Of a DNA stretch of 64,000 nucleotides, positions 24,777 to 26,244 are shown piece by piece. The DNA lies in the NCBI GenBank assembly GCA_900155495.1, contig FTLJ01000057.1, positions 26,053-90,052 on the forward strand. Reading direction: 5' to 3'. Position 1 is the stretch's first letter. Each line of letters begins with the position of its first letter. This DNA is from Porogramme epimiltina. Taxonomy: Eukaryota > Basidiomycota > Agaricomycetes > Polyporales > Polyporaceae. Made by a program: the position numbers and the translations under genes. Below the pieces are notes generated by a model that had not been told where the DNA came from, did not search any database, and worked only from the letters and a program-made list of their open reading frames with translations.

Positions 24777-26244
24777 ATGGTCCTCTTCTCACCTATCCTC
24801 GCTCTTTTGAGCTATGTAGTCTCCGCCCAAGCTGCTCCTGCTACAGCAACGGCCGCAGCAGCCCTCCCAACGGCTACCTCGAATGTTGCTGGGCTGCACG
24901 CGCTCGCAAAGCAAGCTGGGAAGCTCTACTTTGGGACTGCGACCGACAACCCCGAGCTCACCGATACCCCCTACGTCAACATTCTCAATAACGTACAAAT
25001 GTTCGGCCAGATCACGGCAGCGAACAGCATGAAATGGGTCCGTTGCACCACGTTCCGATACCCATTGTGCCCTGACCACCTCATGTGCACCCTAGGATGC
25101 GACGGAGCCCTCGCAGGGCGTTTTCACCTTCACACAGGGTGACCAAATCGCGGCCCTTGCGACACCCAAAGGCCGGCTGCTCCGTGGTGGGTTCTCGCCT
25201 CGGCCGCCCGCGTCGATCTGAGCCCCGCTGATTGGCTCGTCACGAGTGCAGGCCACAACTGCGTGTGGCACGAACAGCTCCCGAGCTGGGTCACGTCTGG
25301 GAACTTCAATGCAGCACAGCTGACGTCTATTATTGAGACGCACTGCGGCACCCTCGTGGGGCACTACAAGGGTCAAGTGTGAGTTCGCTTCCTATGTTCG
25401 TCCGCGGAGCCCCTGGCTGACACACCCTGGCCAGTTGTACGTGGCTTTGGTTCACTATCTTGTGCCAAATATGAGTTCTGATGCGGCCGTCCGTGAACGC
25501 AGATAGCTGGGACGTGGTCAATGGTATGTGAATGAGAAACGGAAAGGTATCGGCTATTGAGGATGAACCGGTAGAGCCGTTCAACGATGACGGCACCTTC
25601 GGCAGCAACGTGTTCTTCAACACCCTCGGAGAGAGCTATATCCCCATCGCCCTCAAAGCAGCTAAGGCTGCAGACCCCAACGCGAAGCTCTACATCAACG
25701 ACTTCAACATCGAGGGAACTGGTATGCCGTCAGCACCTCATGCCGCCCCTTCCACATTTTAACGCCATTTTCCCGCAGGCGCCAAGGCAACCGCGCTCAA
25801 GAATCTCATTACGCAGCTCAAGTCACAGGGTGTGCCGATCGACGGCGTCGGACTGCAGTCCCACTTCATCGTGGGCGAGGTGCCGACGACACTGGTGCAG
25901 AACATGCAGGAGTTCGCTGCGCTCGGCGTCGAGATCGCGATCACAGAGCTCGACGTGCGCATGACACTCCCCGAGACCGCCGCGCTGCTTGCCCAGCAGA
26001 AGAAGGACTACCAGACGGTCATCGCTGCCTGCCAGGCGGTGCCGAAGTGCGTGGGCATCACGGTGTGGGACTTCACGGACAAGTTCTCGTGGGTACCTGG
26101 GACGTTTGCAGGCCAAGGCGGGGCATGCCCCTGGGACGAGGTAGGCTGTGCTGCTGTGCGACATTATTGTGCGGTTGCTCATTCTTATTTTTGTAGAATT
26201 TGGTCAGGAAGCCTGCCTTCGATGGCATCGTAGCCGGCTTCTAG
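24777..26244 (+). CDS. Secreted GH10 endo-1,4-beta-xylanase
   Basis: Eight exons: 24777-25037, 25096-25186, 25252-25378, 25435-25436, 25503-25523, 25575-25721, 25779-26140 and 26197-26244. Together they encode 352 residues. A signal peptide (MVLFSPILALLSYVVSAQA) precedes the catalytic domain. Family landmarks are GQITAANSMKWDAT, LRGHNCVWHEQLPSW, the acid/base Glu in SWDVVNEPFNDD, the fold motif KLYINDFNIE, and the nucleophile Glu in AITELDVRM. It hydrolyses internal xylan bonds outside the cell. No CBM1 cellulose-binding module is present. HYKGQV must join to YSWDVVN; this works only if the dinucleotide TT at 25435-25436 is an exon, flanked by CCAG and GTACGT, with introns of 56 and 66 nt. 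All exon lengths then sum in frame. Two Zn2Cys6 regulators lie 3.7 kb downstream. Confidence 0.93.

What the first reader, a model, noticed from the sequence alone, without database searches (positions are those of the whole stretch)
25379..25502. A 2-nucleotide microexon in the GH10 xylanase gene
Seen: HYKGQV ends in phase 2 before GTGAGT (25379) and SWDVVN starts after GCAG (25502) with only AT left for the preceding codon. A single 124-nt intron breaks the frame. Treating TT at 25435-25436 (CCAG|TT|GTACGT) as an exon gives two introns of 56 and 66 nt, the normal size here, and yields HYKGQVYSWDVVNE, the expected GH10 sequence with the acid/base Glu. All exons then sum exactly in frame. A 2-nt exon is at the lower limit of what a spliceosome can define and automatic annotation would miss it, producing a truncated or wrong xylanase. 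Recursive splicing through the CAG|TT|GT site is an alternative reading.
Basis: partly seen in the sequence, partly recalled or inferred. Interest (0 to 1): 0.75.

Follow-up and report, generated by a model that had tools for sequence, protein, structure and literature searches.

The report
Two-nucleotide exon in fungal xylanase gene
A probable wood-decay fungus appears to assemble its xylan-digesting enzyme using an exon of only two letters, kept at the same spot in sister genes and probably mishandled in many published gene predictions.

Summary
The 2-nt exon reading is strongly supported. Of seven GH10 loci found in this genome (a lower bound), three besides the window carry a 2-nt exon (TT, AT, AT) at the same codons and phases, with introns that keep little detectable similarity. 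A fourth, sister to one of them, lacks the upstream intron and reads CAAGT-TT|GTGAGT, so those two bases are exonic there. Spliced alignment to outside proteins recovers the exon in 4 of 4 genes. Of 156 public genome gene models, 60 depart from the canonical length at this site (27 lack exactly two residues), against 1-5 of 156 at five other junctions; 0 of 28 proteins classed here as cDNA-cloned or lacking a gene model depart. No RNA read across the site could be examined. Exons of 1 nt are already published, so this is a new member of a known kind, notable for its conservation, its natural intron-loss control and its apparent mark on databases.

The parts
24777..25037 (+). Exon 1 (261 nt), start codon and likely signal peptide of the GH10 xylanase
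   Evidence: one search agrees on the 3' end; signal peptide inferred from the hydrophobic start, not tested
25096..25186 (+). Exon 2 (91 nt)
25252..25378 (+). Exon 3 (127 nt), ends in phase 2 after CAA GT (HYKGQ-V)
25379..25434 (+). Upstream intron (56 nt): GTGAGT...CCAG, branch-like CTGAC with A 14 nt from the end
25435..25436 (+). 2-nt microexon TT: third base of the Val codon and first base of the Tyr codon
   Evidence: same place in L009, L013, L014; fused to the upstream exon in L010
25437..25502 (+). Downstream intron (66 nt): GTACGT...GCAG, branch-like CTGAT with A 21 nt from the end
25503..25523 (+). Exon 5 (21 nt), itself small; completes Tyr, codes SWDVVN and the first base of the catalytic Glu codon
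   Evidence: 21 nt also in L009, L010, L013, L014
25575..25721 (+). Exon 6 (147 nt), begins with the last two bases of the acid/base Glu codon
25779..26140 (+). Exon 7 (362 nt), holds ITELDVR with the nucleophile Glu (role recalled for GH10)
26197..26244 (+). Exon 8 (48 nt), to the stop codon
25503..25506 (+). ATAG: candidate acceptor of the rival one-intron model (deletes Tyr-Ser)

Best explanation
The GH10 endo-xylanase gene at 24777-26244 contains a constitutive 2-nt exon (25435-25436, TT). Two ordinary short introns, each with its own donor, branch-like motif and acceptor, are recognised separately as introns (intron definition) and removed one after the other, because a 2-nt exon is unlikely to hold the machinery for both at once. 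The two bases complete Val and begin Tyr in the strand just before the acid/base Glu. Skipping them gives a stop here, so inclusion is required for the enzyme. Shown here: splice-site anatomy, frame, conservation in paralogues, the intron-loss paralogue, and the database signature. Inferred: actual splicing, its order, and constitutive use.
For: Same codons and phases in 4 of the 5 genes of this GH10 group in the genome, the fifth (L010) lacking the upstream intron and keeping TT. L009 has no in-frame one-intron solution under the limits. The introns keep little detectable similarity between paralogues (shuffle z from -1.2 to 2.6 over 16 pairs), so the sites look kept by constraint rather than recent copying. 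Each of the 8 introns has a branch-like motif 13-24 nt from its end (no shuffle control was run for this). Spliced alignment with two outside proteins, P0155 and P0040, finds the 2-nt exon in 4 of 4 genes. Canonical length at the site in 4 of 4 proteins classed as cDNA-cloned and 24 of 24 without a gene model, 19 of these 24 at 61.9% identity or more to a polypore xylanase, against 96 of 156 gene models; five other junctions are off in only 1-5 of 156.
Against: No RNA read or cDNA of this gene was available. All genes compared as DNA come from one genome; no other fungal genome is held. The classes are inferred: 'cDNA-cloned' means listed with no contig (four records, three from one species), and that the 24 proteins without a gene model come from transcripts rests on contig length (14 of 24 are 1.6 kb or less; two list no contig) and unbroken frames; whether those genes carry the microexon is unknown. 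The closest public relative (Dichomitus squalens, P0001, 89% over 314 columns) is annotated without the two residues, as are 26 other gene models. The spliced-alignment scores are ad hoc; the next-best model (a 6-nt exon) trails by only 13 points in the window and 8 in L013.
Confidence: 0.93

Rival explanations
1. A single 128-nt intron from GTGAGT (25379) to ATAG (ends 25506) is removed, and the enzyme lacks Tyr-Ser before the WDVVNE motif.
For: In frame in the window, L013 and L014. It matches 27 of 156 public gene models that lack exactly two residues here, including the nearest relative. AlphaFold2 still gives a good model for such a record (P0001 mean pLDDT 92.1 against 93.4 for P0002; the ten-residue block holding the site 94 against 98), so a misfold is not shown.
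Against: Not found for L009 or L010, whose Ser/Ala codon has no AG. 0 of 28 proteins classed as cDNA-cloned or without a gene model, and 0 of 20 with a bacterial-type CBM2 domain, show the deletion, though it would keep their frame open and searched with the deleted form itself. It costs 10 bits against Pfam GH10 (364.8 to 354.7). The intron would be about twice the size of the others.
Confidence: 0.03
2. A 6-nt exon TTGTAC is used, with donor GTGGCT (25441) and acceptor ATAG (25506), giving Val-Cys-Thr-Trp with unchanged length.
For: Second-best spliced alignment in the window, and its analogue in L013 and L014. A GTNNGT donor always holds a second GT 4 nt on, and the AGC codon supplies an AG 4 nt on.
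Against: Weaker donors (GTGGCT, GTACCT, and a GC donor in L014), and no such solution found in L009 or L010. Tyr, not Cys, stands here in 27 of 28 proteins classed as cDNA-cloned or without a gene model, the other having Phe.
Confidence: 0.02
3. The 124 nt are one unit removed by recursive splicing or as a twin (nested) intron, leaving no exonic bases.
For: CCAG|TTGTACGT resembles a ratchet point, with an acceptor followed almost at once by a donor.
Against: Complete removal gives GTA TAG in the window and, by arithmetic, leaves the paralogues two bases short of frame. L010 keeps TT in the open frame where the upstream intron is absent.
Confidence: 0.01
4. The site marks a broken copy or an assembly error, and the gene makes no full enzyme.
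For: No expression data.
Against: Seven introns and eight exons fit one open 352-aa frame, and the same structure at this site recurs in three paralogues.
Confidence: 0.01

Closest known systems
1-nt exon of Fusarium CYP621A (PMC12940212; parts 1 and 2 of 3 of the text read)
   Same: Fungal exon below 3 nt, flanked by canonical sites, found because phases would not join; an intron-free relative serves as length marker; nearly all public models wrong at the site
   Different: 1 nt, ascomycete P450, confirmed there by RNA reads; here 2 nt, probable basidiomycete, GH10, several paralogues, no reads
1-nt exons of plant APC11 and VPS55 (PMC4674806, PMC8831610; passages read)
   Same: Ultra-short exon missed by annotation, with intron loss in some lineages
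   Different: Plants; experimentally validated
Small exons in basidiomycete genes (P450s of Phanerochaete chrysosporium, shortest 6 bp, PMC1184071; yeast bglA genes, shortest 5 bp, PMC9142197; passages read)
   Same: Tiny exons between short introns in basidiomycete genes
   Different: Larger; none of 2 nt in the passages read
Recursive splice sites (PMC13149111, passages read) and twin introns (recalled)
   Same: Acceptor and donor almost abutting, stepwise removal likely
   Different: Two bases stay in the mRNA

Membership tests
GH10 xylanase | Full-length match to PF00331 | tested here: met
   E 4.8e-109, model positions 2-309 of 311
GH10 xylanase | Acid/base Glu in WDVVNE and nucleophile Glu in ITELDV (roles recalled) | tested here: met
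   Both present in the spliced protein; catalytic activity not tested
Constitutive ultra-short exon (1-2 nt) | Canonical acceptor and donor directly flanking the exon, each intron with its own branch-like motif | tested here: met
Constitutive ultra-short exon (1-2 nt) | Needed for the reading frame | tested here: met
   Omission gives HYKGQV*; an in-frame escape by a shifted acceptor exists but deletes two residues
Constitutive ultra-short exon (1-2 nt) | Conserved position and phase in homologues | tested here: met
   4 genes with the exon, 1 lacking the upstream intron, 2 distant loci without introns there, all in one genome
Constitutive ultra-short exon (1-2 nt) | Present in mature RNA | not testable with these tools
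   No reads of this organism; indirect support from 28 proteins of other organisms
Zero-length recursive splice site or twin intron | No exonic bases remain after removal | tested here: not met
   Frame needs the two bases; TT is open-frame sequence in L010

The most novel reading that the evidence does not exclude
The 2-nt exon is an old, fixed feature of GH10 xylanases across mushroom-forming fungi, older than the split of the paralogue groups seen here, kept while the flanking introns turned over. It would be smaller than any basidiomycete exon met in the papers seen here, and the main cause of wrong GH10 models in their databases. In genes with an AGC Ser codon, microexon skipping with the shifted acceptor could also make a minor in-frame form lacking two residues beside the active site.
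Probability: 0.55. Interest if true: 0.65.

Novelty: new member of a known kind. Interest (0 to 1): 0.55.

Why it matters
It extends sub-3-nt exons to what is probably a basidiomycete and to an enzyme family of industrial use, with a natural control (a paralogue that lacks one of the two introns and keeps the two bases). It offers a concrete cause for wrong public xylanase models: 60 of 156 examined are off at this one junction. It also offers a compact system for asking how a spliceosome handles two introns separated by two bases, and in which order.

Tried and rejected
A one-intron model, a 6-nt exon, a zero-exon (recursive or twin-intron) model and a broken gene were considered and rejected as told under rivals. 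The AlphaFold2 comparison of a record lacking the two residues and a complete one did not discriminate. Ten literature searches with wording for microexon, mini-exon or 2-nt exon, with xylanase, basidiomycetes or related terms showed no report of a 2-nt exon in a fungal xylanase gene in their listings. They cover the open-licence PMC library only; two searches listed 20 of 1,198 and 20 of 106 papers; subscription papers on basidiomycete xylanase genes could not be read. One search was a script that failed on a file-loading bug and was rerun. The option that forbids the 2-nt exon was crude: in L009 it was evaded through a gap at a cost of 28 points.

Limits of the database count. Counts differ by one between the pattern method (60 off, 27 at minus two) and the alignment method (59 off, 28 at minus two). 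The listings show only the best 120 hits per search (4963, 178 and 294 proteins matched), so the 204 distinct proteins are a top slice, not a random sample. One search searched with the deleted form and so favours such records; in the listing alone, which used the full form, 45 of 109 gene models are off at the site (20 at minus two) and 0 of 11 proteins without a gene model. One search set aside 20 proteins with a bacterial-type CBM2 domain as their own class; all 20 have canonical length. The pattern is loose, and canonical length does not prove a correct model.

Full report
What is there. The window lies in a 41.9-Mb genome in 926 contigs, a probable polypore by its nearest listed xylanases (Dichomitus, Epithele, Lentinus and others). 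The gene at 24777-26244 encodes a 352-aa GH10 xylanase in eight exons.

The junction. Exon 3 ends CAA GT in phase 2. The next coding piece begins AT AGC TGG after GCAG, so two bases are missing for Val-Tyr. A listing of in-frame solutions between fixed flanking codons found, among two-intron solutions with good donors, the 2-nt exon in 4 of 4 genes (window, L009, L013, L014); it was the only such solution in L014 and one of 3, 3 and 9 in the others. It found an in-frame GT-AG one-intron solution in three of these (a deletion of two residues) and none in L009.

Paralogues. Of seven GH10 loci, the window, L009, L013 and L014 have 2-nt exons TT, TT, AT, AT. L010 has CAAGTTT|GTGAGT and a single downstream intron. 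L011 and L012 have no intron there and read KVRSWDVVNE. Pairwise intron alignments are little better than shuffles (z -1.2 to 2.6 over 16 pairs, 12 of them above zero; short sequences, so low power). In a 21-row tree L009 and L010 are sisters (100/99), the window groups with P0001 and P0002 (100/99), and L013 with L014 (99/95). The simplest history is one old pair of introns around two bases and a later loss of the upstream one in L010; the direction is inferred, and either direction leaves the two bases exonic.

Unbiased alignment. A small spliced-alignment program, using the outside proteins P0155 (Phanerochaete chrysosporium XynA, listed with no contig and counted here as cDNA-cloned) and P0040 (a 1272-base contig), recovered the 2-nt exon in 4 of 4 genes and the fused form in L010. 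A following 21-nt exon appears in all five. Forbidding the 2-nt exon, with P0155, cost 13 (window), 28 (L009, evaded by a gap), 8 (L013) and 23 (L014) points.

Public records. Three homologue searches listed 204 distinct proteins. Between the HYKG-like and WDVVNE-like motifs the canonical spacing is four residues. It is met by 96 of 156 genome gene models; 27 lack exactly two residues, 27 have 1-17 extra and 6 do not match the pattern. It is met by 24 of 24 proteins without a gene model, 4 of 4 classed as cDNA-cloned and 20 of 20 with a bacterial-type CBM2 domain. Five of the 24 (P0143, P0170, P0184, P0185, P0191) are only 52-58% identical to a polypore xylanase (P0002) and may not be basidiomycete; the other 19 are at 61.9% or more. 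In a control on the same proteins, five other junctions were off the commonest length in 5, 3, 2, 1 and 4 of 156 models, this one in 59 of 156. In the 28 non-model proteins this site was off in 0, and the other five in 4, 3, 1, 0 and 6; the large negative values there suggest cut ends, which I did not check. Fisher's exact test of 60 of 156 against 0 of 28 gives p 1.0e-5, with related proteins counted as if independent. That the microexon causes the errors is an inference: the genomic DNA of those genes is not held here.

Solved structures. In the two PDB alignments shown (6q8m, 7wha) the spacing is also canonical.

How it works. Each half of the 124-nt stretch is a complete short intron of the size usual in this gene, with a branch-like motif. 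Recognition intron by intron, in sequence, needs no exon of minimum length; the authors of the Arabidopsis 1-nt exon favour a similar model of intron definition with one intron removed after the other (PMC4674806, passages read). The order of removal is unknown here.

What is known. A 1-nt exon in Fusarium CYP621A with read support was published in 2026 (PMC12940212; parts 1 and 2 of 3 of the text read). That paper states that 2-5 bp exons are known in Arabidopsis, Drosophila and humans. Plant 1-nt exons are in PMC4674806 and PMC8831610 (passages). Basidiomycete exons of 5-8 nt are in PMC9142197, PMC1184071 (passages) and PMC12940212. So the kind is known; this instance, its conservation in paralogues and its apparent trace in the databases did not turn up in the searches named under Tried and rejected.

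Noticed in passing
L011:139-143 (+); L012 reverse complement 181-185: Both distant GH10 paralogues on contig C133 seem to carry a 5-nt exon (GCGGA, GTGGA) inside the CBM1-like WGQC-GGIG motif, flanked by canonical donors and acceptors: a second tiny exon in the same gene family. Found with query P0155 only; no transcript evidence.
   Followed up: partly
window 25503-25523, and L009, L010, L013, L014: The exon right after the 2-nt exon (after the single intron in L010) is only 21 nt in all five genes, so two very small exons follow each other in four of them.
   Followed up: partly
L009 and L010 (contig C104, 38900-44900): Sister xylanase genes (100/99) lie about 2.5 kb apart on opposite strands, tail to tail, both with a CBM1-like start; one has both introns around the microexon and the other lacks the upstream one.
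   Followed up: partly
public records P0001-P0016: 14 of these 16 close relatives are named endo-beta-1,4-glucanase although they match PF00331 (GH10); the name looks like propagated mislabelling.
   Followed up: no
L011 and L012, 3' parts: Spliced alignment of these two distant GH10 loci becomes poor towards the 3' end, with dubious introns; the loci may be divergent, misaligned or degraded.
   Followed up: no
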